Below are positions 9,213-45,720 of a DNA stretch of 64,000 nucleotides, piece after piece. The notes beneath the pieces are model-generated. The model was not told the origin of the DNA. It saw only the letters and a program-made list of their open reading frames with translations, and ran no database searches. The stretch spans positions 1 through 64,000 of the forward strand of contig JASAND010020403.1 of NCBI GenBank assembly GCA_030248195.1. The letters run 5' to 3'. The position numbers were made by a program, and so were the translations under genes. Origin of the DNA: Trissonchulus latispiculum. Its lineage: Eukaryota > Nematoda > Enoplea > Enoplida > Ironidae. How positions within the stretch are numbered: the first letter of the stretch is position 1; every line of letters begins with the position of its first letter.

Positions 9213-12200
9213 CTATGGGAATGGGATAGCATTTGATAGGCATTCAGCTATCTCCTTCTCAATTTGCTCCAATGCTGAGTTTGCATCAATGGAAATGCCG
9301 GCGTCCCCTGTAGCCTCATTTTGTTTGCCTAATTTGTTGCCATCATCTGCTGAAGATGGCGCACACCTTTTCTCCAACCAAAATGTAGTCATGACACCTT
9401 TACCCTAAAACTAAGAACCAGTGTAAGAAGTTTGGAGCAGACGTTGGCATTTGTAGCTGATTTTAACACATTTTCTTGTGTTAGGTAAATGTAAAATGTT
9501 ACGTAAGATCATGACATTTATCTAATTTATGGTTAAAAGCCATACTTTAGGTTAATCGATTAAATCTTTATAGTGGAAGTTATAAGAAGTTGTAGTGTTT
9601 AAAGCGTGCGAAATTGATTTTTTGGTAAAGTAACGCAAACTGAAAATACTAAAATTCTTTATCTGGCACCACAGACAAAATGATGCAAGATAAACATCAT
9701 CTTTAGATGAGAGCAAATTGGGCAACCAGCTTTGTGCAAAACTTGTAAGAAAGCTGTCAAACCTTGATTTCAGTTAATCCTCTTTCAGTCCAGGAAAATT
9801 CCTCCGAATCTGTCAACATGTTGACGAATGAAGCTGAAGCCTGTATTCTCATAGGTAAGCTTGTTGATTCCATTCTAGATGCCGTATTCACTAAACTTAT
9901 ACATTATATGTGACCAGTGTGGGTAGCTTGTTGCAATGAAATTACTAGCAACTCCTTAGTTCACAGTGAATATACGAAATTGGGCAAACTTAAATACATG
10001 TTTTGTAATAACATAGTTTGGTTTGTTAGTCACTTATCTTCAAACCAAAATGAAAGAGAAAAGAAAGTGTAGTACAGACGGATTGCAACCAGTATACAGT
10101 CGGTTAGTAATGTTGAAACAAATATCCTACTTATTGTTTTAGGGGTTATTATATTTTATCAGCGTTCCACTGTGATTACCTGTGTCCCCAAAAAGGCAAT
10201 AGCGAGGCATTTTCAGGCCAACAACACCAGCCATGCATGGTCCAGAATGTAGGCCAATTCTGACCGTCAACTTCTGATGTAGATGTGTTACATAGAAATT
10301 AGAGACGGCATCAAGAATCGCGAATGACATAGTAGCTAACTCTCGGCCATGATCATTCCCGATGCATAAAGGAACTCCGGCAGATACCATATAAGCATCT
10401 CCTAAAAATGGACTCTTAACCACTAAATAATGCAGCAGGTACGAAACGGATACCTATGTATTGGTTTAGATAGCTTGAGTCATACCTGTGCAGGGTTATC
10501 CATAATCGTTCAAAAATTATCCAGATTATTCCTGGAAGGATATTAGATTGCATATTAACGGATTGTTTGGAACTTTTTGCGAGATTGTGACTGTGAGCTT
10601 TTGAATAGTTAGATGGCTAAATTAAGATTCACACAATGATCACAAGTCTGTTTGTGGGGATTTGGGGGGGATGACCTGGAGCTCAGTCTCAAAGATGTTC
10701 CTCACCAACAAACCGTTTTAGACAGGTTGTTTGAGCAAAATTGCTAACAATTCCTGATGTCTATTACGTATTTCATTGACTGTTCAGTTAATGTGACGTT
10801 CAGTAGGTAATGTTCAGTCATATTCTTAAACAGCCCAATATAGTTGCGTTTGAAAGAAGCTGAAATTTGTAGTGACCTATTCTGCGGTAAATTCATTAAA
10901 CTGTATCCTATACGAACGATGCTGCAATCAAAAATCATTAATATTACCTATTGTTTCCACTTTGTATACACGGAATCCTTCCATAATTTCATCAAATTGT
11001 GTATACAGTTGGTTTAGCATTTCAATAATTTCGAGTGGTGTTGACTTCGAGCATATCTTCGTGAATCCTGAATTTATTATCACAATTTGACAAAGTATAA
11101 TTCAATGTCAACCACTGAATTGTGTTGTGTGTTGCATATGTCAGCTAGCCTCTTAGGCGTGGGCATTTACAGTTGCACCAAGTGCGAACTCTTTTAGAGA
11201 AAAATAGAAAATGAATCTTACGATAATTCCCAATCTATTACTGTTACAATAACCAGTGAAGTGAATATTTTAGCTAGTAAGTTATTCTGTGATTTGCAGA
11301 CAAATATAATAAGAAAAAATATTTTTAACGTTTTGCTGGCTCGAAATTACGGATAGGTAGCATTGAAGGATGTGATAGTCATTGATTACATTATATTAGA
11401 TCTTTTGTCTAAACAGTACCCTATGTGTTTTCAAAACCCAAAGAAATAGCTTGCAATTACTTGTAGAAATACAAATAATTTAGCGGAAATGAAATATTCT
11501 CACCGACAATGTCTGAGAAATAAATTGAGCAGTTCTCATGGAGCTCGGGCTCAACGGATTCGCCTCTGGTCAGCTTTTCAGCTATTTCTTTCGGCAACAT
11601 GTTTTCCAACAATTTTTCCATATTTTCAGTAAGAGCCTTCAGATCTGCCGTTCTTTCTGCAATCTAAAATACTGCTTTTAATGTGTACTCATTAACAGTA
11701 TAAACTACAATACAAACTAATAGCTTCCATAAAATTTTCATGATGAATCTATAGTTACAATGATTACAAAAAATAATTCTAGTTTTACAAATCATTTGCT
11801 GATTTATTTATTGAGCTAATAGTAATATAGTTTGTCAGCTAGTTGGTTAGATTGTTAGTGCCATTTTAAGCTAATTCCTAATAGCGAAAGCGAATTGGAA
11901 ACTCAATAAACTTCAACTAGTTCTGTAACTAAGCCATGGCATTGAACTTCAATCAGTCCAATGTATTAGGTAATTCCGAAAAAATAAACTGATTATTTAT
12001 TGCTATACCTTATCTTCCAAATCACTAGTATAAGTTTCCATTGACTGCACTAAAGTTTCAACAATTGTGACGTTCCTGCCGCTGGAAACTTGTTGCAACA
12101 TCTTTCTCAGTGGTGCTAAGCTTTCCCGCTCTTTTAGATTGCAAGTAGTCGCTTTCTTTATGAAGATTTGTTCCTTTTCAGACAGTATACCAGGTGGTCG

Positions 12201-15128
12201 AATCTCTCTCTCGGATGCCGCTAATTCCCGTATAGCAACGGCTAGCTCGTGGTTGGTTTTTTCCTGAAATATCGTTTGAGATGTGAACACTTCCAGTGCT
12301 AGAATTCCAAGACTATACACGTCATGACAAGGCATGAAGGGTTGGCAAGTGTCATCGGTTAGTAATTTTGGATCAGACCCTTCCAGGAGCAATCGAACAC
12401 ACACAGGGCTGGTCTGGGTTACATCGCAGAATTTTCGATACTTATTCTTGAGGACTTCTGGCCACACCTTTTTCTGCGTATCCTCATATACGGACGCCCT
12501 TTGTACCCAGTCCATGATTTTAACCCGCCAGCTTGTGTCCAGCACGCAACTCATGCTTGTGAGACCGCCGTGGCAAATTCCGTGGTCATGTAGGTAACCC
12601 AATCCCGCGGTAATGTCTCTCAGCAATGCCCATCTCACCGGTTCCGAGACTACCTCTTTATGTTTCCGCAGGGCGTAATATAACGAGCCTTTGCAATTGC
12701 TACCATCGTAGACGAAGAAGATACTGTCGTTGTTAGGTAACAGTCCTATAAAAGATCCGATATTGCAATGCTTAGTGGTACTAACAAAATTCTGAATGCG
12801 TTGTGAAGTTTTCATGCCATTTTCTCTTAGCTTAATGTAAGATGCCGTATGGACATTGTTGAACATTATAACGGGGTCGCCGTTGTAACACTCAATGATT
12901 TGATGGCTAGGAATGTGTTCAAACCCATAGGACCTCGTAATGATTGAAGACATTACTGATTTATGCTCATGCCTTTCTAGTAAATCTCCGAATAAAATCC
13001 AACGCTTGTCTAACAGAAGTCGACGTTTCTTCACAAACCGCACCAGAGGAATTAACGAAAGGAGAAGTATTGTTATGGAAATGATGATTGCAGAAGCAGC
13101 TAGTAGCTGATGCTTCCAGTAGTTTCCTTCCGATTTTTCCTGCTGCTTTTCTTTCGTTACCATGTCGGCCAAAGATTTGCCCTCACAGAAAAATTGTGTC
13201 ACGATTTCGTCAAATACCGCTCTTCCATATGCAAGACCAAACTGCCAAAGCCCTGCCTTGATAGTTTCTTGCTGTGCATGTTTCCCAGTGAACGCCCATT
13301 CAATAAATCTCAAAAACTCCAAATACTGGGAGCAAGTGATTGTAGGAGTTGATGTTTTATTAACTATTAAGGTTTCCACAACAGCCAGGGGATATGTGTG
13401 ACTGGTTTTACACAGGCTTAGTTTCGGCGGTTTGAGGCGCTGGTAGGAAAACATTGTTTCAACCCTTTCGATTAGCGCACACTGAACGTGCTCACCCATA
13501 TTGGAATCGTCAAAAACAAAGCCAGATGGATCACTCAGTTTAGCAATCTGAAGATTGTACCGAACAGCACTGGCGTAGTCAATGAAGCCAAGCGTGTACC
13601 GAATTGACTTTATTATTCCAGCAACTCCAACGGGGCCATCTCCGTAGAATTCGACCACTCCCGGTTCCCAACCCTTGCTCTGATTTGTTAGGGGTACCGA
13701 GTCCATGAACTCTCCATACCGCTGCTTCCATGCGGGTACGGTTTGGCTCAATGCGGCAGTCAGGGCTTGTGTTTGTCCCGTTCTTAGTGCTAAAGTTACT
13801 ACTCTGATCCTTTCGTTGTCTAAGCTTTCGTTGGTAGCTAAGTTCATGCGGCTGTGATTCCAGGTGGTTACATTTCCGCTGAATATTTCAGCAAGTACTG
13901 TCATTGGAATGCTTAATGCCACCCCTGGCAAGTTGTAAACAATCACAGCAGGTCTAAATTGTAAAAGGCAATATAGTATATTCGTATATTTTTAATTAAT
14001 TGCAAAAGGCAATGCAGTATAGCCGTATATTTTTAAACAAGTTGATATGAGATTTCACCTTTAAATGATTGAAATCGCTTGCTGTAAGTGTGCGAATCGT
14101 GTAAGTGCTGTTTATTGAAGGCTTGATGCCATGCAGTGCTACCGGCGGATCTCAAAGCTTTCAGCGTAGCTTAGTTAGCATACTCGAGAACCCGAGGACA
14201 CTTTATGAAACTGGCCCCCGGTCGTGAAGGAAATTTTGACTCTTTGAGGTCCGTGACGGTAGACGTTTCTGCAAGGTCACTTTTATTTATGTAGGTAATA
14301 ACTGAAATTGTCACTTCAGCACCTGAGTCTTCAATAATTTGTGTCTCAGGTGGGATTCAAACCCACGATTGTCGGATTTGCTCGGATGCTCCTCATTTGA
14401 GCTACGAAGGATGCACTCATATCAAGCTAGAATCATCTCCCATCCAAAGTGTTGCGACATAGAATCAATAATGCGTTATGCAACATGAACTAACATATGA
14501 GCAAGGCCGAGGTACACTCTGGTATTCTTAAGCTGGGTCCCGGGTGTGTAAGTTAGACGTAATGTAACACATAAAAATGTCTTTTGGGCACTTGTGTCTT
14601 CAAACATTCGCGCCTCAGTTGATATTTGGATCCACGACTTTGGATTAATGCTCCGACGCCCTGCTAATTGAGCTGTTAGCTTCATTTTTGCTCCATTTGA
14701 GTATGGTTTGAAAACGGGATTGACACATTTATAGACATTTAGACTCTGCTAACCATTAAAATGAGCTCATACCCTGCAACAAATGGCACGAACAGGAAGT
14801 TTGGATCATCGGTTATCAGTTTGCTCAAATTGCGGCTGCCGGAGACCCCGAAAAGATATGGAGCATTCCTATCAAATCTCTCTCCAGTCATAACTTCTTC
14901 GCCAACCACTGTATCTGTGGCGTTGTACGTTATTTCAACGTGCTTGAATGGTTCACGTTCAACCTTGTACATAATGGACCAGGTATTGATGATAGATGCG
15001 GCATGATCCCCACCAAGTCCAGACAAGTGAACGTTGGAATCTACCCTCAAAATCACCACCACCAGCAACAGCACAATAACAGTGAGCATTCTCTGGAATG
15101 TAGTCATGGAAAAGCCACTAAACAACAT
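9213..15128 (-). CDS. Receptor guanylate cyclase with PstS-like ectodomain (7 exons, about 1040 aa)
   Basis: Exons on the minus strand: 15128-14773, 13953-12009, 11663-11504, 11067-10948, 10401-10180, 9890-9763, 9404-9213. All junctions are GT-AG and phases agree throughout. A signal peptide ([18 protein letters not shown]) leads into a type 2 periplasmic-binding fold of the PstS family, about residues 30-390. It shows [16 protein letters not shown] across the first junction, then [18 protein letters not shown] and LGFIDYASA. One membrane helix lies at about 400-424. A kinase-homology domain follows (about 450-725). It is a pseudokinase: HGG replaces HRD and MDW replaces DFG. The class III cyclase domain (about 800-990) has [32 protein letters not shown] and NTASRM; the Glu and Cys select GTP, and metal Asp, Asn and Arg are present. 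Predicted role: extracellular ligand, perhaps phosphate, controls cGMP synthesis. ATG at 15128 or 15107 may be used. Metazoan receptor cyclases normally carry an ANF-receptor ectodomain, so this one is unusual. Confidence 0.93.
14255..14412 (-). repeat. tRNA-derived SINE in cyclase intron 1, copy 1
   Basis: The minus strand has an A-box-like TAGCTCAAATGAGG and a complete T-arm (GTGGG TTTGAAT CCCAC). A tail with GAAGACTCAGGTGCTGAAGT follows and is shared with the next copy. The anticodon arm is not convincing, so this is a SINE head and not a tRNA gene. Confidence 0.6.
14520..14690 (-). repeat. tRNA-derived SINE in cyclase intron 1, copy 2
   Basis: The minus strand has AGCTCAATTAGCAGGGCGTC (A box), a decayed B box and a tail with GAAGACACAAGTGCCCAAAA matching copy 1. 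It is more diverged. Confidence 0.5.
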
Positions 15129-28855: not shown

Positions 28856-28862
28856 TTAATAC

Positions 28863-30751
28863 CTGGAAAATGAGATGGTCTTTTTGTAGTCATATTCGGT
28901 GCAGCTGGGAAGGCACCTAGCATGACACCCATGCGAAAGCTTTACACCAGATTCCAGCATTGCAAAGGTTGCAACCGAGCTGCAAATTAGATTTTGCAGA
29001 ATGCTACAATCTGGAAGGCTAGACTTGGTAACGTTCACAGAGGGTGTCGTAAGGCAATCGCTGCATTCCGGACTCATTTCCACAGCCTTCTTGTTTATAT
29101 TATTCGCTATGCATTTGAACATGCACACCTGATAGTTAGTTCCTTCAGACCGGACACAGGGACTGGATTTGGTTCCCAAACGAACTTGCCGAAAATGTTT
29201 CAGAGAAATATCAGCAAACGTGCCTGCAGGGACATGAACCAGCTCTGGTAGTTGAACTCTCACATCGGCAGGATGCAAAAATCCAATAATGCAACCATCA
29301 TTTGAAGGCATAAGAAAGTCAGTCTGATATCCTTCAGGAATTCTGATGTCCATTTTCAATCCTGTAAACAATATCATTCAAGTTAACATGACTCTGTAAG
29401 AGAAGCAGGAAGAAGCAGGAAAGATTGATACGCCTGATATGGGAGTTCAGCTGATGTCCCGTAGTGTAGTGTTTAGCAAAGCGCTACAACTCTACTTTTG
29501 TTCTGTCTGCTTTCAATCAACCTTTCATTCAATTCATTTTCAATGCCCTATGTGGCAATATCGATTATGATTGCCATTCTGCACGATTCTGAGCTACGGG
29601 CTTGTTTCCCATAACGAAAGTCTCAGAGCAAACTGTCTAGAGTTATAGTTACAAAGCGCCAACACAGCGTGAGGAAAGTGTTACTGCGCTACAGCGTTCG
29701 CGAAGTGAGCGAGTTTCTGGGCGTTTAGTATTAACATCCGAGGTCCAGTCCAGACTCAATACATTACTGTCGCAGGTGCGGTCCTAGAGACTTTATGTCA
29801 CAATTGTTGCATTTGAACTTAAAACCAACATCCAATTTACACTACCTTCCACGAGGCCCGTTAAATATTATTATGCAGCATGTTTATACGCACGCAGCGA
29901 AAAATTTTGCAGGCGTCTGGTTACACATATGCGGGCAACATGCTAATAGTGTTTGAGGCCGGCGGAGGTTTCACCGGCCGGCCGCCGGCCGTTGAGCATA
30001 TAGGCCGGCCGGCTACCGGCCTGGAGTGAAGCTATTATGACGGCTAAGACATTGATTTTCGGATTTTATAGTAGAAAAATGGCATAGCATAGCATAGAAA
30101 ATAAGCATAGCTAGATTTGGAGCACATTTTAAGCTTAGTTGCTCTATATTGTAAATTTCTGGTTGCTAATTTGTATTCCACGTATTCTATTTGGACGTTA
30201 GCAAATGCCGTCGGCCGGCGGCCGGCCGCCAGCCGGTTCAGTCCGGCCGGCCTCAAACACTACCTGCTAAATCAGAAAGTATGAAATAATTCTTTAGTCA
30301 GTAAGTTCAGTTAAGGTCAACTACAACACCGTAAAAGTTTAAAGTAGTACCGGCTGCAGGATGAACTGTATTCTGAGTAAATCCGTGTATGGTCAAAGAA
30401 ACTCCATACAGCCCAAAGTTCTTCATGCTTCTATTGCAGCAGGCAGTGGTATCCAAAAGGTTGTTGTAGCCCAACTGGCAAAACACAATCAAGTCTTCAC
30501 AGCGATGAGCTATTTTGTCAAAAAAGCTTAAAGTGGTTTCTGACTTTGCAGCAAGCATCCTGTCTAGTTTCATTGCCTCGTCGACAAGAACGTTCATTTG
30601 AGACGGCACTGTTTGCGACACGTTGAGATAGGTGAAATAGTAGTTGCCAGGAAATATGGCACCCAATAGAATATTTATTGTAGACATTTCGTTTTGGGAA
30701 GCATCTATTCCATTGTTCTTCAAGTAAGTTATCAGTCTAGATCTGTTAAAC
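28863..30751 (-). CDS. DEG/ENaC (ASIC-type) sodium channel, two extracellular exons, partial
   Basis: Two exons on the minus strand, 30751-30351 and 29361-28863, join in phase across a GT-AG intron and form Gly at the junction. Together they cover 300 codons of an extracellular domain. Upstream: C-E-D-L-I-V-F-C-Q then ACCNRSMKNFGLYG, the finger/palm region. Downstream: GYQTDFLMPSNDG, VHVPAGTFADISLKHFRQ, then the cysteine-rich thumb (YQVCMFKCIANN...CSDCL...CHARCLPSCTEYDYKKTISFSR). The CLPSC.EYDY.K..S block is the signature that precedes the second membrane helix. DEG/ENaC proteins are trimeric, amiloride-sensitive cation channels gated by peptides, acid or force. The first and last exons with the membrane helices are not seen. 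The donor after 28863 is CAG/GTATTA, so the gene continues left. Intron 1 holds a SINE and a hAT MITE. Confidence 0.85.
29394..29520 (+). repeat. tRNA-like SINE (S2 family) in the DEG/ENaC intron
   Basis: Shares GAAAGATTGATA..CCTGATATGG.AGTT.AGCTGATG and GTGTAGTG..TTAGCA with the better preserved copy at 50956-51100. The B-box part is decayed. Confidence 0.55.
29947..30262. mobile_element. hAT-like MITE with GGCCGGCC-rich ends, 316 bp
   Basis: The ends TAGTGTTTGAGGCCGGC and GCCGGCCTCAAACACTA are complementary. Flanks CATGCTAA and CCTGCTAA form an 8-bp target duplication with one mismatch. Both subterminal regions are runs of GGCCGGC words while the centre is AT-rich. It sits in the DEG/ENaC intron. 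Confidence 0.85.
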
Positions 30752-34832: not shown

Positions 34833-35092
34833 GTAAGTTATTTTTTTACTGTTGTGTAAAAGACTGAGCACAGGACAGTACTTATATCAATTTCGATTGC
34901 GCAATACTTTTTCCATTTGTAATGATGACTCACCTTTCATTCAGTTGGAAAGTTTCGTTTGTCGGGTGCGGTCGCTTTTATCAAATTGGGCTCCGACTTT
35001 AGTACAGATTTTGGGGTTGCCCCTCTGTCTCTACCTGCCTTAGATTTTCTTTTAACTTGTTTTCTTGACCAATTCTAACTTTCTAATTCAAC

Positions 35093-35848
35093 TGTAACGG
35101 ATCAAGTTTGGACATGGTCAACCTTTACGTTGCTGGTGATGTAGCTAGGCTAGCTACCCGCTTGGCTTAGCATATCATCAAAAAGGGGCTGGGTTTACTT
35201 TGCAAGTCACGTAGCTCCCCCAACGTGTACGTTTGGGATTGGGTGGGTTCCCCCCCTTGCTATACAGGGAGCTACGTGATTGGGGGGGGGCAAATTCTCA
35301 CTAGGGGGCGCTCGTGGGAGGGTTCAACCCAACACTCGCTTCCCCCCATCAGTCTTGTACTTTCTATCATTGTGAACGCTCTTATATTCCTCTACGCTTT
35401 CTCCCCCCATTTACTGTGTATATAATTTGCCCCTTATCACCCTTGGGACCGGTGCTGGTACGTTGGCCTTCTAGGCCCTGTAACTGTAAGTCTATTATAT
35501 TGTGTGATTGTTTGTTTAACTGAGGGCCCGGCCCATAACTGTATTTTATATTATTCTTATATAATATTTGTTGTTCTTCTTTATTAAATTGTTGCTACTA
35601 CTTTTAATTAGGCGTGAGTCTACTGAGCTCCTGCTAGGTAGGTGGTCCTGTTCGAATCCAATATCAGTGAGAGTGAAGAGACATCTTTTCACTTAGGGCA
35701 GGTTTCTACCCGGTTTACATCTGGCGAGGCTGTCCCGACCGTCTCCTGTAGTTGGTTCGTTGTCTATTTGTTTACGGTCTCCGCATCCGTCAGGTTTCGG
35801 GTGTGGTAACAGTGCTCGTACGTAGAATCCGGTACTTGCTCCGCTACA
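35093..35848 (+). repeat. 5' LTR (756 bp)
   Basis: Nearly identical to 44091-44821. It has about 26 extra bases (TTGGGATTGGGTGGGTTCCC region at 35232-35258) missing from the 3' LTR, plus scattered substitutions. No clear primer-binding site follows; the next bases are TTAGGCTGCCAGG. Confidence 0.9.
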
Positions 35849-36463
35849 TTAGGCTGCCAGGAGCTCAGGGATTTTTTCTTGCCTGAACCCCTTCGTGAAA
35901 ATTTTCCAAATTTTTGTCAATTTTTATTTAATTTCGTTGGGTCTCCCTCCGTAGTTCCTCGCATTTGTGCACGAAATTTTTTCCATTTTTTCTTATGTAG
36001 GTAAACCCCTCCTAGGGTCAAAAATCCGAAATTTTTTTCTCTAGGGTGTGAGTGTTTTGTATACGTATATAATTGTGTGCTTGTGTTCCCCCAAATTTAG
36101 GCTCAAAATATAGTATTTATTTTTGGGGTGAGCTAATTTAGGGCTATTTTTTGGGATTTGAGCTAGGAAACTTTTTCCAAAGTTCATACCTATACTACAA
36201 ATAATTTTACTGTGCTAATTTTGTTTGTTCTTGTGATTTTTGCCTAATCGCATTTCTTTTAGGTTAATTTCGGTAATTGTTTCCTTTTCAGGTCTAAAAA
36301 ATAGCAGGCATCTGCTCAATCACCATCAATATATTGTATTTTGTCTAAACTTTTATATACGTATATAGGTGCATTTTTCTGGGGTACCTAGGAAAATTTT
36401 TGAGTCGTATCTAATATTGTTTTTGAAAAAGACCTTTTAGATTTAAGAAGAGAGTTCGACTCT
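35849..36463 (+). other. Leader region of the LTR element
   Basis: AT-rich, no ORF; presumably the 5' untranslated/packaging region. Confidence 0.5.
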
Positions 36464-38935
36464 ATGGATCAAAAGCGCACTAGTCAACGCTTGAAGGAGA
36501 AGGAACTACGTCACCAACCATATAGTGTGACTGGTCACCGTGGAGACTCCCATGTGGACTGTATGGGCTGTCTGCCGTCTACGTCGAGAATGACTGCTGG
36601 GTCGTTCACTGACCGGGACCCGGCGCTAGGGATGCGCCCCCGGTCCAGTTCTGCTTCAATGGCGGAACTTAGAAGAAAGCAGAGTGGCTGGGCATCAGGG
36701 ACTGCTCGGAAAAGCAGTGCCCCTTCTCTGGACCCATCAAATTCCGGTTCTTTGACCACCTTGTCCGAGCCTGAACTGCCGGAAGCAGGTCTGGCATCAG
36801 AACCTGTCTTCTTGACAGCAGCCTCAAGCATGGCATCATTAGCCGACGACCAGCCTGGCGGTTCGACCGCTCAGACTCTGAGGTTTCACGACGAAGCCAT
36901 CAGGACGTTGGACTGAAATGCGGTTGGGTTGGACCAGAGGGACTCTCCTCAGGGTCCTGAGTCGAGTCCCGGGGACCAGACCGTCGTCGGTCTAGGGGAA
37001 CGCATGGACTTGGGTTCAACTCGGGTTCATGAACGGTCTCTGTCGGAATCTGATGATGATCTTTTGGCCCTGGGAACTGCGGCGATGCCTGGATTGCCAC
37101 CTCTGAATGACCTGGTCACGTCAGTGCTTCAGAACCTAGGAATTGATCTGGAGCACGAATTCTCACTTGGAACGGCGGCACTGAACAATTGATCAATGGA
37201 TTCGGGAGTGCAGCATAGGCTGTCTTGGGACCCATCGTATGATGTTGGTTCCCAGGATTTGGCTTCACCGATTCATCAGCCAAGTCCATCAAGGAGCTCC
37301 GCGGGTGGCATCACCCCGGTAGCAACGAACTCTGGAATGGAACAACAAGTTATGGTGCCTCAGTCCTCACAAGGGACTAACAGTGGACAGATGGGTTCGA
37401 CCCAGCGTCCAGAGGGGTCAGTCGTGATCACTGTGAACACGACGGACGTGAATAACCAGCTATTGCGACCGGACCTTTGGTCAACACCATCATATACCTC
37501 ATCACCGGTGACCAGACGGCCAAATATCTTGCGGCCATCGGTTCGTGGTGGACGAACCGGTCATCGAGTTCATGCTGGTGGTCGGACTTTGATGTCATCA
37601 ATTCCGGAAACCAGTCCGGTTGGTCATTCGGGCCAAATGGAACCATCAACCAGTCACCAGCCATCACAAGATCAGGCGGTTCGACCGACTGGTCCCCCAT
37701 CGCGACGGTCATCGTCGGGTGGGTCGGTCAACATGATCAGGATGACACCTCAGCAAGTTCAGATGTTGAATGATTACACCAAGTGGTTCAAGTCCATCTC
37801 CAGGTTCAAGGGCAGAAAAGGAGCCATCAAATTATCAACATGGTTGAAGATGTTTGAGTCAACTTGGGAGGCTAGTGGGGCCGAGCTTGACCTCAAACGA
37901 CCATTGTTGTGGTATCTGCTTGACGAGTCGGTCAAGCAAGACCTGGAGGGTCAGTCCATGGGAACTTATGATGAATTGGTGTCCATTCTTCATCAGCTTA
38001 ATGAGCCAGTCACCAAATCGGCCGATAAATACGCCCGGGAATTCTTCGAAAGGAAGCAACTCGCATCAGAATCGAGCCTGGATTACCTCAATGAACTGGG
38101 GTCCATCGCCTGTAAAGCTTTTCCGACGGCCGCGTTGAAGGAACGGGAGCTGAAGGTGGTGGATCGGGCTTCGCGTGGACTCATGTCGGCTTTGCGAGCA
38201 AAGGTCGCGAGTTTGTTCGCCGATGTTGAGAATTGGGACCATCGTAAGCCCAATGACATCTTCATGCGAGCCGTGCGTATTCTTGAGGCGGTCGAAGAGG
38301 GTGACACCCAGTCGAAACCCATGGAGACCATATGTAGCGTTGGTGATGGTGAGAGGGTTCAACCCGTTGACCAACAGGAATGTCCTGCGTATGTACGAGA
38401 ACTCAAACGGGAACTTCAGGACATCAGGAACTCAATCGTTCAGAACCAGGCGATGACAGCAGGCCATCAAACCTGGGACGATGAAGTGGTCGCAGCCTGT
38501 GAGATATTGGACGATCCGAACATGCAAGACTTGGACCCGGAGGAAGTCTGTTTTCTGGTGGAGCAACAGGCGAACACTGGAAACTCAGGAAAGGCATCTT
38601 CTAGTCAGGATAGGTCCAATCGTTGTACCTACTGCGCGGAACCTGGTCACAGGTGGGCACATTGTCCGATGTATAATAAGAACATCACCTTCTGGGGTGA
38701 CGACCCACTTTGGCTCAGAATGGTCAACAGCAGGTTCTTCGGATGCTTGCTGAAGCAGAAGGACGATGGCACTGGTCAATTCGAAGTGAAACGCCCGTCC
38801 GGCGGTGGTGGTGCAACGCGTGGTTCGGGTCGCGTCCTGGCATCAGGTCGTGGCGGTGGTGGGTTCAAGAGAAGAGGTGGTGGTGGTGGAAACAATGATG
38901 GTCAGCGAGGTGGTGGCAATTCGGGAAACGAATGA
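36464..38935 (+). pseudogene. Gag polyprotein with CCHC zinc knuckle, two in-frame TGA codons
   Basis: One frame runs through 36464-38935 and is broken only by TGA at 36914-36916 and 37190-37192. The N-terminal 240 codons are Ser/Pro-rich without known domain. The part from 37196 (579 codons) contains a capsid-like helical region, about residues 185-380 (YTKWFKSISRFKG...WLKMFESTWEASG...REFFERKQLASESSLDYL), as in retrotransposon Gag. It is followed by one zinc knuckle CTYCAEPGHRWAHCP and a Gly/Arg-rich RNA-binding tail. The TGA at 38933-38935 overlaps ATGATG of the next frame, a gag-pol style overlap. Both internal stops could be CGA-to-TGA decay or readthrough sites. Confidence 0.85.
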
Positions 38936-39430
38936 TGGGGAAGCGGACCCCCGCCAAAAAACCGCAGGCCGGTCATGTTAGCATGATTAGGAGGCCACCC
39001 GACCACAGGGGTCACAATTTCCCGAATTATGGATCTCAGGGATCCCGAGTCGGTCATGGGTGCCGACCAGCAAACCAACCTCGTTATTCAGGCCATGTAA
39101 CCGGACCCCGTGATCTTCCTACGTCGTCATCGACGTCAGCTACTGCCGGAAAAACCGAGAATGCGAACCGGGAAACTCCACCTATTCCGAAATTGAAACT
39201 CCAGAGGTCGGTTGGGAATACCTGGCAAACGCCTCGTAAGGTCGCGAACCAGACCTCCACCAAAGGTCAGGATGATATTCCGACGTTCAATAGGTTTGAT
39301 CCGTTGGATTTGTCCAAAGTGGACGCGGACATGTTGGAAGCATACTGGTCCCGATTGACCAAAGCTCAGGACGCCTGGAGCCAGGAGCCAAGAAGAGGAA
39401 AAGTTGGGGAAAATGGAGGGTGCTGTTCAA
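38932..39430 (+). CDS. Start of the pol-like frame, no domain
   Basis: It begins with ATGATG overlapping the Gag stop by four bases, in the -1 frame. The sequence is rich in Pro, Ser, Arg and Gly, and ends with FDPLDLSKVDADMLEAYWSR, probably a helical segment. At about 39400-39430 coding potential moves to another frame that continues toward the protease. Confidence 0.5.
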
Positions 39431-39830
39431 CGGCAATCCCCCAAAACGAAGGCAGCAGCGAAGACAGTCATTGACAACATGGAGGATTTCGAGGAGGTTC
39501 TGAGTGCCTTCATGAAGAAATTCCGTCAAGATCTGAAGATGACACGGACCGTCCTTCGACTTCGGGGCATCCCGGAGCCGGGATCGACCAGGACGGCTCG
39601 GCCGAAAAGGGCATCGGTGAAGCTGTCCGACAGGTTATGGAGTGCGAAGCGGTCTATTTTGCGAATTCTGTGGCTTCCATTTCATTGCGGCACTCGCCAT
39701 ATGTCACTGCCCTGGGTCTAGTGGACACCGGCGCTTCTGTCTCACTGATCTCACAGGAGTTCTACGAGAGGGTCAAGCATCACGCATTGACGCCCATGAC
39801 AGTGTCAATCGGTGGTCCAGGATCTGGGTT
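39404..39830 (+). pseudogene. Retroviral-type aspartic protease, frameshifted
   Basis: The active-site flap LVDTGASVSLIS (39715-39751) is the hallmark of retropepsins, preceded by VECEAVYFANSVASISLRHS and followed by QEFYERV. The N-terminal linker (about 39404-39640) is in a different frame from the active site, and coding moves again at about 39800-39830. Its role would be Gag processing. The hydrophobic-hydrophobic-Gly motif near the end of the fold is not clear, so activity is uncertain. Confidence 0.75.
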
Positions 39831-40795
39831 CCGATCACCCCATGGGACAGCAACCAGTGGTTCCCAGTTGCGTGTTCGACACTTACGAGGTGTCGGAATC
39901 TTCAGTGGATCCTTTATCGGAACTGTTTGGACAATTGGACCCTAATATTGACACGGATTTGTACAGTGCCGTGGTCGCCTCGGACAGCAATCGGATGGGT
40001 CCTGGACCTTCAAGCGTGGCATTACGTCTGGGAGGCCAACCTGATGCTCCTACCCCATCCCCTCTGGGTTCATCAAATGCCGGCCAGATGGATCCCCAGT
40101 CTTTGCCTGAGGTCCCCGTCGAGCCAGCTCACGAGACCGTCTCTGCTGGTAAGGACGCGGTGGCTGCAGCGCAGGGCTGCCCGGCCCCAACGACTGGCCA
40201 CCGAACATACCATGGACGAAAGGTCCCTAGCCCAACTGGCAAGCCCGAACATCAAAACAATCCTGTCAATCCGTCTAGTCAGGGGACCAAACGCCCAGCA
40301 GTTGCTGCCAGTGGCGATGCCACCGAAGATTCGGACACTCGGAGCTCGGCTCCAAATGGGAAAAAGCAACGAGCAACATCACGAAGGAACAGTCCAACAT
40401 CCACTTGCTCCATAAGTGCGCCTGGAGTAAGTCAAGACACTACCCCAGTGGTTCCTGGGAAGGAAACCACATTGTCACTAAAGGACATCGAGAAGCAGAT
40501 GGCTCTGCTGGAAAGCCAACGCCATGTCGTCCTGCAGAAGATGCACAGTCAGTCTTTAGCATCTTTGGACACTGCTTCGTCAGTTGCTGAGTCATCTCAG
40601 TCAACTTCTACGAAATCGAAGAAACGGAATCGTGGTAATTCCAAGAAGAATCAGCGTGGGACTCAGCAAGCTCAGTCTGCCACTGAAACTGACGACCATC
40701 CCGAAAAGCCATCACGACGAGGAACTCGTTCTGCTGCGAAAAAAGAAGGCGGGGCCGGCATCGGCTACCCCTACTGTGGTGAATCTGGAATCTGA
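39812..40795 (+). CDS. Ser/Pro/Lys-rich linker of the LTR-element polyprotein
   Basis: Low-complexity, probably disordered, with a coiled-coil-like stretch (LKDIEKQMALLESQRHVVLQKM) and basic tracts (KSKKRNRGNSKKN) that could bind nucleic acid or act as nuclear-localisation signals. Its frame gives way to the next at the A6 run at 40739-40744, consistent with a one-base indel or programmed shift. Confidence 0.5.
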   Translation: MVQDLGSDHPMGQQPVVPSCVFDTYEVSESSVDPLSELFGQLDPNIDTDLYSAVVASDSNRMGPGPSSVALRLGGQPDAPTPSPLGSSNAGQMDPQSLPEVPVEPAHETVSAGKDAVAAAQGCPAPTTGHRTYHGRKVPSPTGKPEHQNNPVNPSSQGTKRPAVAASGDATEDSDTRSSAPNGKKQRATSRRNSPTSTCSISAPGVSQDTTPVVPGKETTLSLKDIEKQMALLESQRHVVLQKMHSQSLASLDTASSVAESSQSTSTKSKKRNRGNSKKNQRGTQQAQSATETDDHPEKPSRRGTRSAAKKEGGAGIGYPYCGESGI

Positions 40796-41714
40796 TACGC
40801 CAGCAACAGGCACACCAACCACCCAGCAGAAGGTCCCCATGGGCGAAGTCGCTGATGCTCAGCTGAAAGCTGGCCAGCTCATGGTGGTCGACGAGGTGAA
40901 CGAAGAACGTGAAGTTCTGTCAGCGGACGCAGCGGAATCGCTAGGAGTCCCATCTCGACGGGCAGCAGGAATGGACGACGTGGTACAGAACGTCCCAATG
41001 GTTGCGGACAGCCACGAACATTCCCTGCCCCTCGATCGAAATCCTATTATCATAACTCCCCCGGAGAAGGTCACCGCACACTCCTACAAACTGCCAAACA
41101 AGGAGGACATCGAAGCCATTCCTGGTGACCTACAGGACAAAGCCAAGGAACATCTTTACGGAGTGGCTGCTTACCATGCATATCTGAAGGAGGTCCTCAT
41201 GGGTCGGGAGAAGGACTTCGATATCGCACATCCTGATGCCTGCCTGATTGAAGCCATCAATGACGTCACTACAGTGAAGGAGCCGGAGAAATATCAGCGG
41301 TTCTGTGCGGATCAACTACCTCTGCCAGACCAATTTCAACCCCTGCGGTTGATCAGGACCCTTAAGGGTCTATTTGACGCTATCCCGGATATCCTGGACA
41401 CCTATCAGGCAACGGGCGTCGTTGCGATAGATATCGAAGGCGGAGCTTACACCCAGTTCGCCAACAAAATGGATGCGACTGTCACCATGATCCAAATCGC
41501 TGGTCCAGTTCCAGCAAAACATCCTAAGGTTTTTATGATCATGGTTGGCGAAATTCTAATGTCAGTGTGGGACTACTACCCCGTCCTGTATGCCTTGAAG
41601 ATCATCCTGCACCCGCCTGAGCCGGTTTATATGGTATTTGCTGGTGGGCAGGCTGATTTTCTCCGATTAGCCAAATTCTGTGGCATCACAGGCATGGAGA
41701 CTTATGCAGCCTAA
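40740..41714 (+). CDS. DEDD 3'-5' exonuclease-like segment in the LTR element
   Basis: After about 150 residues of linker there is a helical region (DKAKEHLYGVAAYHAYLKEV). It is followed by VVAIDIEGG (Asp-x-Glu, as in exonuclease motif I), VTMIQIAGP, a beta strand VFMIM, and VYMVFAGGQADFLRLAKFCGI, which resembles motif II with its Asp. The order and spacing fit the EXD1/WRN/RNase D type. The third motif (Tyr or His with the last Asp) is not seen: the frame stops at TAA 41712-41714 and the NADAR domain starts almost at once in another frame. The fold may be truncated or inactive. Function, if any, would be trimming RNA or DNA ends. Confidence 0.5.
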   Translation, partial: KKKAGPASATPTVVNLESDTPATGTPTTQQKVPMGEVADAQLKAGQLMVVDEVNEEREVLSADAAESLGVPSRRAAGMDDVVQNVPMVADSHEHSLPLDRNPIIITPPEKVTAHSYKLPNKEDIEAIPGDLQDKAKEHLYGVAAYHAYLKEVLMGREKDFDIAHPDACLIEAINDVTTVKEPEKYQRFCADQLPLPDQFQPLRLIRTLKGLFDAIPDILDTYQATGVVAIDIEGGAYTQFANKMDATVTMIQIAGPVPAKHPKVFMIMVGEILMSVWDYYPVLYALKIILHPPEPVYMVFAGGQADFLRLAKFCGITGMETYAA

Positions 41715-42607
41715 CTGGGAGCGGTCTTTTGGGGCCGGAATATGCCTTCTCCTTCATGTTCAAACACCAGCCGTTCGTCAACTTGCCGGTGGAACAGTTC
41801 GAAAACAACTATGTTGGAACCAAGGAACACCTCTATCAGGGGCGCAAGGGCTGGTATTGCCAGTCTGATGTCGTCATGGACCTTGTGAGGGATCATCCCG
41901 GTCGCGATGGCTTTGCCATCAAGCATAGCACGGATCAAGCCATCGCCGCTCTGCCCGATTGTCGCCTCCAGCGATGGCAGTCAGGTCCCGATCAGCTCAA
42001 TCAGCGGCTGATCATTTTCCATGTCTTCTACCATTGCCCTGATATGCAGGAGTTCCTGGTCCAGACGACTGGGAGCTATTACTGCAAGGCTTCCACGGAC
42101 CCTTGGTGGGGGATTGGTGTGAAGGTTCCTCGGGGCTTTAAGCCTGATGACCTGCTGTTCGACGGCAAGTACAACTGGCTGTTCAACACCAAGAATTGGT
42201 CAGGCCTCAACATTCAGGGGTCCCTCTATACGGAAGTGGGACTATGGTTCATGCAGGGTGGACCCGACGAGCTGTGGGAGGATCGGTTCGACCGAATTCC
42301 CTTGTCCGGAGCCCGGCTCAACGCCTATCTGGACGTGGTCCGTAAACGCATCGCGGCGGCCGCGGAGCGCTACAAGAAGGGCCTGCCAGCGCCTCCTTTG
42401 TTTCGTACGGAGCCACCATTGGCCTTGATGAACCAGCCCATCGACATGCCGGTCAACCGGGAGGGCATTCACATTGTTGGCTGTGCCCCTCCAGGTGAGG
42501 AGAAAAACATCTTCTACCCCTCAGTGGCCTTGACCCTGTGGAACCCATTGGAACCTCATCCCCAGGACCACCATCGGGCCACAGACATCATCATGATGGA
42601 GTATTGA
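41700..42607 (+). CDS. NADAR (YbiA/DUF1768-like) domain protein in the LTR element
   Basis: The open frame has no ATG at its start (TTG at 41729), so it is probably expressed as the end of a polyprotein by frameshift. The NADAR signature is clear: AFSFMFKHQPF, then KEHLYQGRKGWY with the conserved Glu-His, a helix, RLQRWQSG, FLVQTTGSYYCKASTDPWWG (the Asp-x-x-Trp-Gly motif), and SGLNIQGSLYTEV at the end of the fold. It covers about 180 residues, like stand-alone NADAR proteins, with a 100-residue tail. NADAR proteins act on N-glycosidic bonds and on ADP-ribose, and some remove ADP-ribose from guanine in nucleic acid. In a retroelement this could counter host ADP-ribosylation or repair the element's own nucleic acid; this is inference. 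The key Glu, Trp and Asp are present. Confidence 0.8.
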
Positions 42608-44090
42608 GCGAGTCGGCATCGACCCTCAAGCTTCGGAATCTGGAGTTCTCCATCAATTCTGACTATTTTCCCACGGAAAGATTCCTTTCCTGATATGACT
42701 TTACTTTCTTCTGGCATCTGATTGGGTCTGACTTATGTCGCCCACCACGCTGACGGTTCGGCCGATGTCAGAACTTGGATTTGGAATTCTCCTTTTGATC
42801 ATTATGATCCTGACCGATATATAAGGTCTTTGTTTTATCATTTTTTTCTGACAGTGACACTTCTACTTACATTCCATATATATATATATATAGTATGTTA
42901 TTTTGTATTTTATTTATTATTTATTTTATTGTATTATTGTATTTTATTTTTCTGTGTTGTTTAGTTTAGTTAATACGAACGTGTAATCTCTATATTTTTG
43001 TATTCGTTAGTTTAGTTAGTTTTGTTTGAAAGTATTTACTTACGAGCCTTATCTCTTGTCATGTGCACTGTGTAAATTTAGGTATGTATGTTTTTTCTTT
43101 GTGAATCTGGATATCCCTTTTATATATGTTTGTTGTGAATCTGAAATTTTTCTTGTTTACCTATCTTCGAACCTATAATCTTAATGTATTTTTATGTTAA
43201 CTCATATATATATATGTCGTATATTAACCAAAGTTTTTCTAATAGTATTATACTACGCCAATTTTGTTTGCTCATTTCATGTCCAGTGCTTTATTGTGAG
43301 GATTCGATCCATATGCTATTGATATAACTGCCATATATGCCTTATTATTGTCAAAAAATCCCAGTGATGGCAACATCATATGGAAATACAAAACTTTTAC
43401 CGAGGGAGGGTGGGTTTTTATTCCCTTACCCTTAGGACCTCACCCTAACGGTGTGTCTTTCTATGTTAACTTTATTATTATAATCATTATTATCATAGGC
43501 TGTTTACCTCGTCAAGCGAAGGCCTGATAAACCCTAGCTTGGCATGGTTAAACTTAAATTTATTAATATTTTATCTGAAAGTTCAACTTATTTTCTTGTT
43601 ATCTTAATATAACTAACACACTCGTTTGACTATACATTCCAAAAGAGGGTAACTCCTCTTTCCCATGAGTTGCTTTTGGAAAGTCAGTGTATTTTCATAT
43701 CTAGCTACTTATTTCCAAATATTTTTACGGTTCTACTCATACGTGTATTTTTGCATATGCATAATTTTGGTTCTTTTTGTGCTTTAATTTGTGATTGTTA
43801 CTGGCATAGCTAGTATATGCTTATTCCATTGTCAACATGTCGTATTTAATCACTTGTTTTTTTGTATTTTCTACAATACGTATATACGTAGATTTGCGTA
43901 GTTTTGATTAGTTTATTATGGTTTAGTCTAGCTTTGTGACTTGCAGTTTGACAGATCGTCTGTAGAGTACTAGTATTTGTAGCAGCATTGCTCTGTACTA
44001 TGTGTACTTGATTTGAGAGCTTGGGTCACGTACTAGTTCGCCTTTGAACAGTGATCCTCTCGGGAGTTCGGATGGCGAGCCCTGGGGAGA
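42608..44090 (+). other. 3' untranslated region of the LTR element
   Basis: Very AT-rich, with TATATATATA runs near 42880 and 43205; no ORF with a domain. It ends in GGGGAGA directly before the 3' LTR, a weak polypurine tract. Confidence 0.55.
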
Positions 44091-44821
44091 TGTAACGGAT
44101 CAAGGTTGGACATGGTCAACCTTTCCGTTGCTGGTGATGAAGCTAGGCTAGCTACCAGCTTGGCTTAGCATATCATCCTCAAAAAGGGGCTGGGTTTAGT
44201 TTGGAAGTCACGTAGCTCCCCCAACGTGTACGTTTGCTATACGGGGAGCTACGTGATTGGGGGGCAAATTCTCACCAGGGGGCGCTCGTGGGAGGGTTCA
44301 ACCCAACACTCGCTTCCCCCCATCAGTCTTGTACTTTCTATCATTGTGAACGCTCTTATATTCCTCTACGCTTTCTCCCCCATTTACTGTGTATACAATT
44401 TGCCCCTTATCTCCCTTGGGGCCGGTGCTGGTACGTTGGTCTTCTAGGCCCTGTAACTGTAAGTCTATTATATTGTGTGATTGTTTGTTTAACTGAGGGC
44501 CCGGCCCATAACTGTATTTTATATTATTCTTATATAATATTTGTTGTTCTTCTTTATTAAATTGTTGCTACTACTTTTAATTAGGCGTGAGTCTACTGAG
44601 CTCCTGCTAGGTAGGTGGTCCTGTTCGAATCCAATATCAGTGAGAGTGAAGAGACATCTTTTCACTTAGGGCAGGTTTCTACCCGGTTTACATCTGGCGA
44701 GGCAGTCCCGATCGTCTCCTGTAGTCGGTTCGTTGTCTATTTGTGTACGGTCTCCGCATCCGTCAGGTTTCGGGTGTGGTAACGGTGCTCGTACGTAGAA
44801 TCCGGTACTTGCCCCGCTACA
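44091..44821 (+). repeat. 3' LTR (731 bp)
   Basis: Same TGTAACGG start and CCGCTACA end as the 5' LTR, shorter by one 26-base indel. CAAC follows and matches the CAAC before the 5' LTR. Confidence 0.9.
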
Positions 44822-45720
44822 CAACTCACACCTCCTCCCTCTCCTGTACTCAATTTCCAATTTCCCCTATTTTCCCCTTTTCCCCCATTCTTGCGTTTTG
44901 TCTCCCCTCCCACAAACTTGTACTTATTGGTAGCCAGTAAGTTATAATTTTGTTTATCACCTTTTACTTCTTCGTTTGAATTTTAACCGTATTTTCTAAT
45001 AAATCGCCAGTTGTTAAATCCGTTCGTTTAATTTAAGTAATTTGCGGGTTGACCTACTTATAATTTTTAGGTAAACACCCCGGGGCTAGTCTGGGGTATT
45101 TCACTAGTGTGCTTTTTCGGTCCAATCTCCCACTTTCAATTCAGGCGCCAGACAGTCCGGCGTCCCCCAAAAATTCATATCCCCCAAACCTGGCGAGGCT
45201 CGTCCGGGATCTAAAAGAGAGCAGCTGGACAATATCTCCTTAGCAGTCAGGGCTTGTATTACATTGCGCCAGTCCTTTGTAGTGGTGGTAGCTCCGTGGT
45301 TCAACTCCCGGGCTTCTCCATTACACCGGTATATCCCTCCTCGGGCCCTCGGTCAAAAGTCAAGACAAGGTCTCAACAGCAACAACTAGCAAATCCACAA
45401 CCGTTTCTCCGGGCAGCCAAACCACGACTGACTTGAAATTTCGGAAATGTTTGAGGTTTCGGGGAAGACCTGTCAATCATGTGTGCGTGACGTGCAGAGA
45501 CGGGGCTTGCGGCTCCCTTTCGTGTAATGAGTTTCGTGCATGTATGTATCGTCATACGTCACTTATCTGTGACGTATGAACCCAACTCAAGGGGTGAAGA
45601 AGGCTCCCCAAATTCCCAAACTTGGACGCATTAACCCCACTTAGTTTCCTTGGGAGATAAGTCCCCAAATTTTGATCTTTTTCGTAAACAGAATCATAAA
45701 TTCTCAAAAGCACTTTCTTT
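44822..45720. repeat. Older repeat that hosts the LTR element
   Basis: 45120-45420 matches 31650-32000 inverted, and 45425-45665 matches 22130-22385 inverted, including the TACGTCAC/GTGACGTA palindrome. Pyrimidine-rich DNA at 44830-44910 resembles the complement of 32270-32350. These are parts of an LTR-like element older than the one inserted in it. Confidence 0.5.

What the first reader, a model, noticed from the sequence alone, without database searches (positions are those of the whole stretch)
35093..44821. LTR retroelement with NADAR and exonuclease-like domains where reverse transcriptase and integrase should be
The LTRs, target duplication, Gag and protease define a retroelement, but the 3' coding half holds a DEDD-exonuclease-like segment and a NADAR domain with its key Glu-His, Asp-x-x-Trp-Gly and Gly-Asn motifs. 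NADAR proteins are linked to NAD/ADP-ribose chemistry, including removal of ADP-ribose from nucleic-acid bases. A Gag-packaged NADAR could protect the element's genome from host ADP-ribosylation. I know of no described element with this layout.
Basis: partly seen in the sequence, partly recalled or inferred. Interest (0 to 1): 0.95.

Follow-up and report, generated by a model that had tools for sequence, protein, structure and literature searches.

The report
Giant retrotransposon with exonuclease-NADAR third gene
The window holds a shrunken, broken copy of a roughly 19-kb retrotransposon whose longer relatives in the same genome carry, besides the usual genes, a huge third gene with an exonuclease-like and an ADP-ribose-pocket-like (NADAR) domain that natural selection has kept.

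Summary
The LTRs, 4-bp target duplication, Gag, protease trace, exonuclease-like half-domain and NADAR-like segment are real. The layout is not: the window copy is a deletion derivative. Four relatives mapped in the same 734-Mb genome read gag, pol, a separate third ORF of about 2,340-2,360 codons, LTR (about 19 kb in C9782). Both odd segments belong to that ORF3. The window copy lost about 4.6 kb (most of protease, RT, RH, IN, start of ORF3) and about 4.06 kb (centre of ORF3); the second junction is spanned by 1 of 40 scored matches, the window itself. ORF3 lies in the env position behind a splice-acceptor-like site, has no membrane-like segment and is under purifying selection (dN/dS 0.09 exo, 0.14 NADAR, one pair of copies). 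Its NADAR keeps Glu-x6-Lys and Asp-x-x-Trp but lacks the last-strand catalytic acid in 31 of 31 readable rows, so plain de-ADP-ribosylation is doubtful. The genome also holds many canonical NADAR genes, some with an exonuclease-like N-terminus and the same domain order. Precedents in print: NADAR in Pol of Ectocarpus Gypsy elements; DEDDy-exonuclease ORF3s in rotifer LTR elements. My literature searches showed no element with both. New variant of a known kind.

The parts
35089..35092 (.). target-site duplication CAAC, left copy
35093..35848 (+). 5' LTR (TGTAAC...GCTACA)
   Evidence: 97.5% identical to the 3' LTR (direct repeats)
35623..35633 (+). LTR-internal 11-mer complementary to the segment just after the LTR; candidate self-priming start of R
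   Evidence: present in 5 of 5 copies compared, 0-1 of 500 shuffles as long
35858..35868 (+). complementary 11-mer in the primer-binding region
36404..38935 (+). gag region, one frame interrupted by two stop codons (before 36917 and before 37193); zinc knuckle near 38620-38670
   Evidence: compare the open gag frames of L039/L040
38923..38929 (+). GGGAAAC slippery heptamer in gag phase just before the gag stop; candidate -1 frameshift site to pol
   Evidence: 3 of 3 copies looked at
38899..39802 (+). N-terminal part of pol with the DTGAS protease motif; lacks about 508 b at 39100/39102 and about 47 b at 39528/39533 relative to L039, and carries a stop at 39472-39474
39803..39804 (.). deletion junction: about 4.6 kb missing relative to C6921 (most of protease, RT, RNase H, integrase, intergenic acceptor-like site, start of ORF3)
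39805..41726 (+). ORF3, N-terminal third, in two frames in this copy (39800-40795 and 40560-41714)
   Evidence: 89-91% nt identity to L032/L033
41418..41714 (+). first half of the DEDD-exonuclease-like domain (AIDIEGG motif I, GGQADFLRL motif II); motif III is lost with the deletion
41727..41729 (.). deletion junction: about 4.06 kb (centre of ORF3) missing; spanned by no other scored match
41730..42607 (+). ORF3 C-terminus: NADAR-like domain (Pfam match about 41795-42238) and C-terminal tail
41825..41848 (+). E-H-L-Y-Q-G-R-K, counterpart of the NADAR Glu-x6-Lys active-site pair
   Evidence: residues from PMC11543638 passages
44080..44090 (+). purine-rich segment before the 3' LTR (candidate polypurine tract)
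   Evidence: read by eye
44091..44821 (+). 3' LTR
44822..44825 (.). target-site duplication CAAC, right copy

Best explanation
The window element is a defective, deletion-carrying copy of a roughly 19-kb Ty3/gypsy-type LTR retrotransposon family. Longer members code for Gag, Pol (PR-RT-RH-IN) and a third, env-position protein of about 2,320-2,340 aa counted from its first ATG. That protein has a Ser/Pro-rich N-terminus, a DEDD(y)-exonuclease-like domain with all four acidic positions, an unknown conserved middle, an Arg/Ser-rich stretch and a C-terminal NADAR-like domain. Shown: architecture in the copies mapped, copy number, selection, deletions. Inferred from sequence: Pol is made by -1 frameshifting at GGGAAAC; ORF3 is made from a spliced mRNA, as env genes are; minus-strand DNA may be self-primed by the LTR 11-mer. 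Inferred, function: ORF3 is an intracellular accessory protein that binds and trims nucleic acid of the replication cycle, or host small or defence RNAs. The exonuclease would be the catalytic part; the NADAR domain would be a recognition pocket for NAD/ADP-ribose-type ends or adducts rather than a standard ADP-ribosyl hydrolase. ORF3 probably descends from the exonuclease+NADAR proteins that are multicopy in this genome.
For: Relatives: blast maps of four copies; Pfam PR (E 2e-5, below cut-off), RT (E 1.7e-32, 2.6e-32), RNase H, H2C2, rve in the two pols scanned; ORF3 frames of 2,342 and 2,359 aa. 134 NADAR-segment matches, 28 of the 134 rows in frames of 2,324 aa or more (my count). dN/dS between one copy of each subfamily: exo 0.086, NADAR 0.135, whole ORF3 0.162, pol 0.059. 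NADAR: Pfam E 2e-4, best of 24,736 families; a profile from 5 exonuclease+NADAR proteins scores it above all 1000 shuffles. Exo: D-x-E, D, Y-x3-D identical in the two copies aligned; 8 and 11 of 1000 shuffles score as well, with a second colinear hit on motif III in the copy printed. The same domain pair in the same order occurs in 5 of 5 long NADAR frames that I chose to read, 688-731 aa. Acceptor-like site and CACCATG before ORF3 in the two copies looked at; no membrane-like segment. Slippery site 3 of 3; self-complement 5 of 5.
Against: Function is not shown. NADAR Pfam scores (20-22 bits) lie under the curated cut-off of 35.1, and the local profile matched only its Trp-Gly part. Other libraries gave only non-significant hits: TIGR02464 E 0.11, and phrog_1017, which has no name, E 0.018-0.058. 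The exo domain has no Pfam match and scores only 0.8-2.3 bits, with shuffles up to 7.0. hhalign of ORF3 exo and NADAR against the exonuclease+NADAR proteins: P 0.38 and 0.42 (profiles with almost no diversity). Single-sequence AlphaFold models were useless (pLDDT 42 and 29). PDB sequence searches gave chance hits only, and three protein-collection searches of limited sensitivity gave none. Descent from the exonuclease+NADAR proteins rests on shared pair and order.
Confidence: 0.53

Rival explanations
1. As the first reader proposed for function: the NADAR domain is an active enzyme that strips ADP-ribose from the element's nucleic acid, as a counter-defence against host ADP-ribosylation.
For: Glu-x6-Lys kept in 28 of 30 readable rows and Asp-x-x-Trp in 31 of 31. 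Eukaryotic NADARs remove ADP-ribose from guanine (PMC11543638, passages), and the NADARs tested in PMC11125620 were active on guanosine-ADPr (passages). RNA-virus NADARs were proposed to target host ADP-ribosylation (PMC9503650, passages). Purifying selection.
Against: The last-strand catalytic acid (Glu/Asp/His) is Lys (Met in one row) with Cys or Gly beside it in 31 of 31 readable rows, and no acid stands elsewhere in that stretch. Replacing the equivalent Asp in E. coli C7 NADAR lost efficient activity, though a neighbouring conserved Glu there proved dispensable (PMC11543638). No evidence of packaging with Gag.
Confidence: 0.2
2. ORF3 is an envelope substitute: env position, spliced, used for cell-to-cell or membrane passage.
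For: Position after pol and acceptor-like site. PMC5408684 calls an env-like role of enzymatic ORF3s formally possible, but argues against it for lack of TM domains (passages).
Against: No hydrophobic segment of membrane strength (best 19-residue Kyte-Doolittle mean 1.77, inside the exonuclease-like domain). Very large, with an Arg/Ser-rich stretch. Signal peptide not tested.
Confidence: 0.07
3. A genuine non-autonomous family of Gag-PR-exo-NADAR elements that uses a partner's RT and integrase.
For: The window copy alone looks that way.
Against: The ORF3 junction is spanned by 1 of 40 scored matches (268 candidates), the window itself. The copy has in-frame stops and frame changes. Four relatives mapped carry a pol frame upstream, with RT and integrase in the two scanned.
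Confidence: 0.03
4. Transduced host sequence, neutral passenger.
For: Other NADAR genes abound in the genome.
Against: ORF3 frames of 2,324 aa or more in 28 of 134 rows, dS about 1.1 with dN/dS 0.16.
Confidence: 0.03
5. ORF3 is a real selected third gene, but the exonuclease and/or NADAR resemblance is superficial and its true folds are something else.
For: Weak profile scores, other libraries not significant, no structural confirmation.
Against: NADAR is the only Pfam family matched in that stretch, at E 2e-4; active-site motif register; shuffle tests.
Confidence: 0.14

Closest known systems
Ectocarpus Gypsy lineage with YbiA-family NADAR in Pol (e.g. Gypsy-12_Ec32; PMC12477816, section 5 part 1 of 2 and passages read)
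   Same: Ty3/gypsy LTR element carrying a NADAR-type domain, in several families
   Different: [quoted passage not shown] Here it is the C-terminus of a separate third ORF with an exonuclease-like domain, and very divergent. Sequences were not compared.
Bdelloid rotifer LTR retrotransposons with DEDDy-exonuclease ORF3 (Juno, Vesta; PMC5408684, abstract and passages read)
   Same: DEDDy-type exonuclease-like domain in an ORF3 downstream of pol; modular sharing between elements
   Different: No NADAR in the passages I saw; ORF3 here is about 2,340 aa. No rotifer sequence was fetched or compared.
Tx1 LINEs of Crassostrea gigas with NADAR-like ORF1 (as reported in PMC12477816)
   Same: NADAR in a retroelement accessory position
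   Different: non-LTR element, ORF1
Exonuclease+NADAR proteins of 688-731 aa in the same genome (L045, L046, L048, L049, L050)
   Same: DEDD-like exonuclease then NADAR, same order, multicopy
   Different: canonical NADAR with the catalytic Glu, much shorter, not in the gypsy element
Nematode SNA-3 (PMC9303266, abstract and passages read)
   Same: eukaryotic NADAR domains working in RNA metabolism
   Different: host trans-splicing factor with three NADAR domains; no exonuclease in the passages I saw

Membership tests
Ty3/gypsy LTR retrotransposon | TG...CA LTRs with target-site duplication | tested here: met
   (CAAC, 4 bp)
Ty3/gypsy LTR retrotransposon | pol order PR-RT-RNase H-integrase | tested here: met
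   in the two relatives scanned, L039 and L040; absent from the window copy by deletion
Ty3/gypsy LTR retrotransposon | RT phylogeny within Ty3/gypsy | not tested
   placement rests on domain order and Pfam models
Ty3/gypsy LTR retrotransposon | tRNA-type primer-binding site | tested here: inconclusive
   no TGG start seen by eye; an 11-nt self-complement instead, as recalled for Tf1-type elements; host tRNAs not compared
NADAR superfamily | profile match above the curated cut-off | tested here: not met
   20.1-22.2 bits against 35.1, though E 8e-4 to 2e-4
NADAR superfamily | Glu-x6-Lys active-site pair | tested here: met
   13 of 13; 28 of 30 readable of 32 rows (Gly or Trp for Glu in the other two)
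NADAR superfamily | Asp-x-x-Trp motif | tested here: met
   13 of 13; 31 of 31 readable of 32 rows (the pattern searched for required it)
NADAR superfamily | last-strand catalytic Glu (Asp or His in subfamilies) | tested here: not met
   so 'NADAR-like' only, no claim of enzyme membership
NADAR superfamily | YbiA fold | tested here: inconclusive
   single-sequence model pLDDT 29
DEDDy 3'-5' exonuclease (RNase D/WRN type) | D-x-E, D, Y-x3-D acidic motifs in order | tested here: met
   identical in the two subfamily copies aligned, motifs assigned by eye; the window copy keeps only the first two
DEDDy 3'-5' exonuclease (RNase D/WRN type) | profile match | tested here: inconclusive
   no Pfam match; 8 and 11 of 1000 shuffles as good with a local profile; hhalign P 0.38
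Ectocarpus NADAR Gypsy lineage | NADAR at the N-terminus of Pol | tested here: not met
   no NADAR match in Pol of L039/L040 up to E 1; it ends ORF3
Retroviral/errantiviral envelope | membrane-spanning segment | tested here: not met
   hydropathy scan only

The most novel reading that the evidence does not exclude
A gypsy-type element and several other multicopy loci of one genome share an exonuclease+NADAR module. In the retrotransposon it has grown into a giant spliced third protein whose NADAR lost its catalytic acid, turning an ADP-ribose hydrolase into a sensor or guide that directs the exonuclease to NAD/ADP-ribose-marked or end-modified nucleic acid: a previously undescribed accessory system of retroelements.
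Probability: 0.25. Interest if true: 0.82.

Novelty: new variant of a known kind. Interest (0 to 1): 0.6.

Why it matters
Retroelements occasionally take up enzymes whose use is unknown. Here NADAR-type and exonuclease-type domains appear united in one conserved gene, kept by selection, beside a large genomic pool of canonical NADAR genes, some with the same domain pair. That makes the open question of what NADAR domains do in eukaryotic mobile elements testable with isolated domains, and gives a clean contrast between an intact and an altered active site.

Tried and rejected
Single-sequence AlphaFold of the window's NADAR segment and exonuclease half: confidence too low to use, so no fold search was run. 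Three searches of the large protein collection (at E 1e-3; 62 at E 1), two viral-contig scans and one genome-contig scan: no relatives; these tools find only relatives sharing exact words or peptide patterns. PDB sequence searches with ORF3 parts: chance hits only, best E 0.029 to an ankyrin repeat. hhalign of ORF3 exo and NADAR against a two-sequence exonuclease+NADAR alignment: P 0.38 and 0.42, not significant. PADLOC: no match for the ORF3 NADAR part at E 0.01, matches for two canonical NADARs. Organism identity: not settled; window genes with an ASC channel match and a PBP-like+kinase match suggest an animal, and the one COX1 search did not complete. Sharing of the first deletion junction, and a census of pol copies with ORF3 behind them, could not be run (genome search busy). 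Considered and dropped: Gag-PR-NADAR non-autonomous family; neutral transduction; envelope. On re-checking I lowered the best explanation from 0.55 to 0.53 and raised 'superficial resemblance' from 0.12 to 0.14, because phrog_1017 carries no name and cannot count as agreement on NADAR.
Full report
Observation. The region 35093-44821 is a 9.7-kb LTR element. The LTRs (756 and 731 bp) differ by 18 substitutions in 728 aligned columns, and CAAC flanks both ends. The reading frames are broken: gag by two stop codons, pol by a stop and a frame change, ORF3 by frame changes. Pfam finds an aspartic protease trace (E 0.005) and NADAR (E 8.2e-4, 20.1 bits, cut-off 35.1), but nothing for the exonuclease-like segment.

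Relatives in the same genome. The window lies in a 733.8-Mb assembly, contig C13866. The NADAR segment has 134 matches there (a lower bound; 133 of 1173 candidates scored), in two groups at roughly 86-96% and 71-80% amino-acid identity; by my count of the rows, 28 of 134 lie in open frames of 2,324 aa or more. I mapped four copies (C2990, C6921, C9782, C17626) piece by piece against the window element. All four have gag, a pol frame (cut by the end of the fetched stretch in C2990), a separate ORF of 2,342-2,361 codons and the 3' LTR; the 5' LTR match is partial in all four, by the end of the stretch or by truncation. C9782 is about 19 kb by its coordinates. Pol of the two copies scanned (L039, L040) holds aspartic protease (E 2e-5, below cut-off), RT (E 1.7e-32 and 2.6e-32), RNase H, integrase zinc finger and core.

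What the window copy lost. Relative to C6921 it lacks about 508 b (39100/39102), about 47 b (39528/39533), about 4.6 kb (39802/39805) and about 4.06 kb (41726/41730). The 4.6-kb loss removes most of protease, RT, RNase H, integrase and the start of ORF3; the 4.06-kb loss removes the centre of ORF3. A search with 261 bases across the last junction gave 40 scored matches of 268 candidates; only the window spans it, and the 39 others stop at it from one side or the other. The other large junction could not be searched (tool busy).

ORF3. Between one subfamily A copy (L044) and one subfamily B copy (L043) ORF3 is 74% identical with dN/dS 0.162; by part: exonuclease-like 0.086, NADAR-like 0.135, middle 0.115, Arg/Ser-rich stretch 0.317. 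Pol is 97% identical (dN/dS 0.059, dS 0.28 against 1.11 for ORF3), so ORF3 and pol seem to have different histories, as if modules were exchanged (a single pair, simple counting method). ORF3 starts at a CACCATG behind a pyrimidine-rich TTTCAG acceptor-like site in the two copies looked at. It has no membrane-like segment, and residues 1421-1780 from the ATG are 18-20% Arg and 14-16% Ser.

NADAR-like domain. A copy with an open frame scores E 1.9e-4 (22.2 bits, still under the cut-off). Other libraries gave nothing significant: TIGR02464, a riboflavin-intermediate N-glycosidase model that I recall as YbiA-type, E 0.11; phrog_1017, without a name, E 0.018-0.058. Aligned with canonical NADARs of the same genome, the Glu-x6-Lys pair and Asp-x-x-Trp-Gly are kept. 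The last-strand catalytic Glu is not: 31 of 32 rows could be read there (30 loci, the window among them, plus L043 and L044, which repeat L029 and L008) and none has an acid; one row (L026) was unreadable. For Glu-x6-Lys, 30 of 32 rows could be read: 28 keep it and 2 have Gly or Trp for Glu. PMC11543638 (passages) reports that replacing the equivalent Asp in E. coli C7 NADAR lost efficient guanine de-ADP-ribosylation, while a neighbouring conserved Glu was dispensable there. Simple hydrolysis is therefore doubtful; binding remains possible.

Exonuclease-like domain. D-x-E, D and Y-x3-D are identical in the two aligned copies. A profile of five exonuclease+NADAR proteins from the same genome scores the ORF3 region 2.3 and 0.8 bits; 8 and 11 of 1000 shuffles do as well (best shuffle 7.0), and a second colinear match covers motif III in the copy printed. 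The NADAR part scores 8.3 and 7.8 bits, 0 of 1000 shuffles, through its Trp-Gly part only. Against this, hhalign gave P 0.38 and 0.42, Pfam gave nothing for the exo part, and the structure models failed. I regard NADAR-like as fairly well supported and exonuclease-like as probable.

Replication signals. GGGAAAC precedes the gag stop in gag phase in 3 of 3 copies, a candidate -1 frameshift site; a second heptamer, AAAAAAC, lies behind the stop in 2 of the 3. The 11-mer CTGAGCTCCTG inside the LTR is complementary to CAGGAGCTCAG 8-9 nt behind the LTR in 5 of 5 copies, although the LTRs are only about 75% alike between subfamilies. This resembles the self-priming I recall for Tf1 and is not a tRNA-type site by eye.

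Surroundings in the genome. A NADAR family search scored 150 of 2478 candidates, all over the cut-off (124.6 bits or more) and so all stronger than the ORF3 domain. Five rows that I chose for their long frames are 688-731 aa proteins with an exonuclease-like N-terminus and a NADAR C-terminus; Pfam confirms NADAR in 5 of 5 and the exonuclease (PF01612, E 1.5e-4, just under its cut-off) in 1 of 5. ORF3 may descend from this kind of protein: same pair, same order, a long middle between them.

Known kinds. PMC12477816 (section 5 part 1 and passages) reports a Gypsy lineage in Ectocarpus with NADAR at the N-terminus of Pol and NADAR-like ORF1 in oyster Tx1 LINEs. PMC5408684 (abstract and passages) reports DEDDy-exonuclease ORF3s in rotifer LTR elements and sharing of such ORFs between retroelement types. 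PMC6338049 (part 1 of 4) mentions DnaQ-like exonucleases as accessory domains of LTR elements. PMC9303266 (abstract and passages) shows NADAR domains needed in a nematode trans-splicing protein. My literature searches (listings) showed no element with both domains; they cover only open-licence PMC papers.

Verdict. A real, selected, unusual accessory gene of a large gypsy-type family; the window shows a damaged copy. New variant of a known kind; function inferred only.

Noticed in passing
own genome, (150 scored of 2478 candidates): The genome holds many canonical NADAR genes, in frames of about 140-296 aa and 552-731 aa, all scoring far above the gypsy ORF3 domain.
   Followed up: partly
L045, L046, L048, L049, L050: Proteins of 688-731 aa with a DEDD-like exonuclease N-terminus and a canonical NADAR C-terminus, and a possible degenerate dsRNA-binding-like segment between them (by eye).
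   Followed up: partly
L051:4854-6888 and L046:249-4255 (contig C16016): Same-strand cluster: bZIP-like ORF, kinase-like ORF, exonuclease+NADAR ORF, unknown ORF, kinase-like ORF; looks like a mobile or viral unit.
   Followed up: partly
L047:1447-3058 (contig C11319): A 175-aa NADAR ORF followed by a YqaJ/viral alkaline-exonuclease-like ORF (Pfam E 1.8e-7), suggestive of an integrated DNA virus.
   Followed up: partly
window 35623-35633 and 35858-35868: LTR 11-mer complementary to the primer-binding region, conserved in 5 of 5 copies: possible self-priming.
   Followed up: yes
L043/L044 compared with L039/L040: ORF3 dS about 1.1 between subfamilies while pol dS is 0.28: possible modular exchange between element lineages.
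   Followed up: partly
window 12006-13991 (-): ORF with PBP-like (just under cut-off) and kinase domain matches, perhaps an unusual receptor kinase.
   Followed up: no
window 28859-29377 (-): ASC (DEG/ENaC channel) match, pointing to an animal host.
   Followed up: no
L039:1-1094: The C6921 copy begins with two consecutive partial LTR matches.
   Followed up: no
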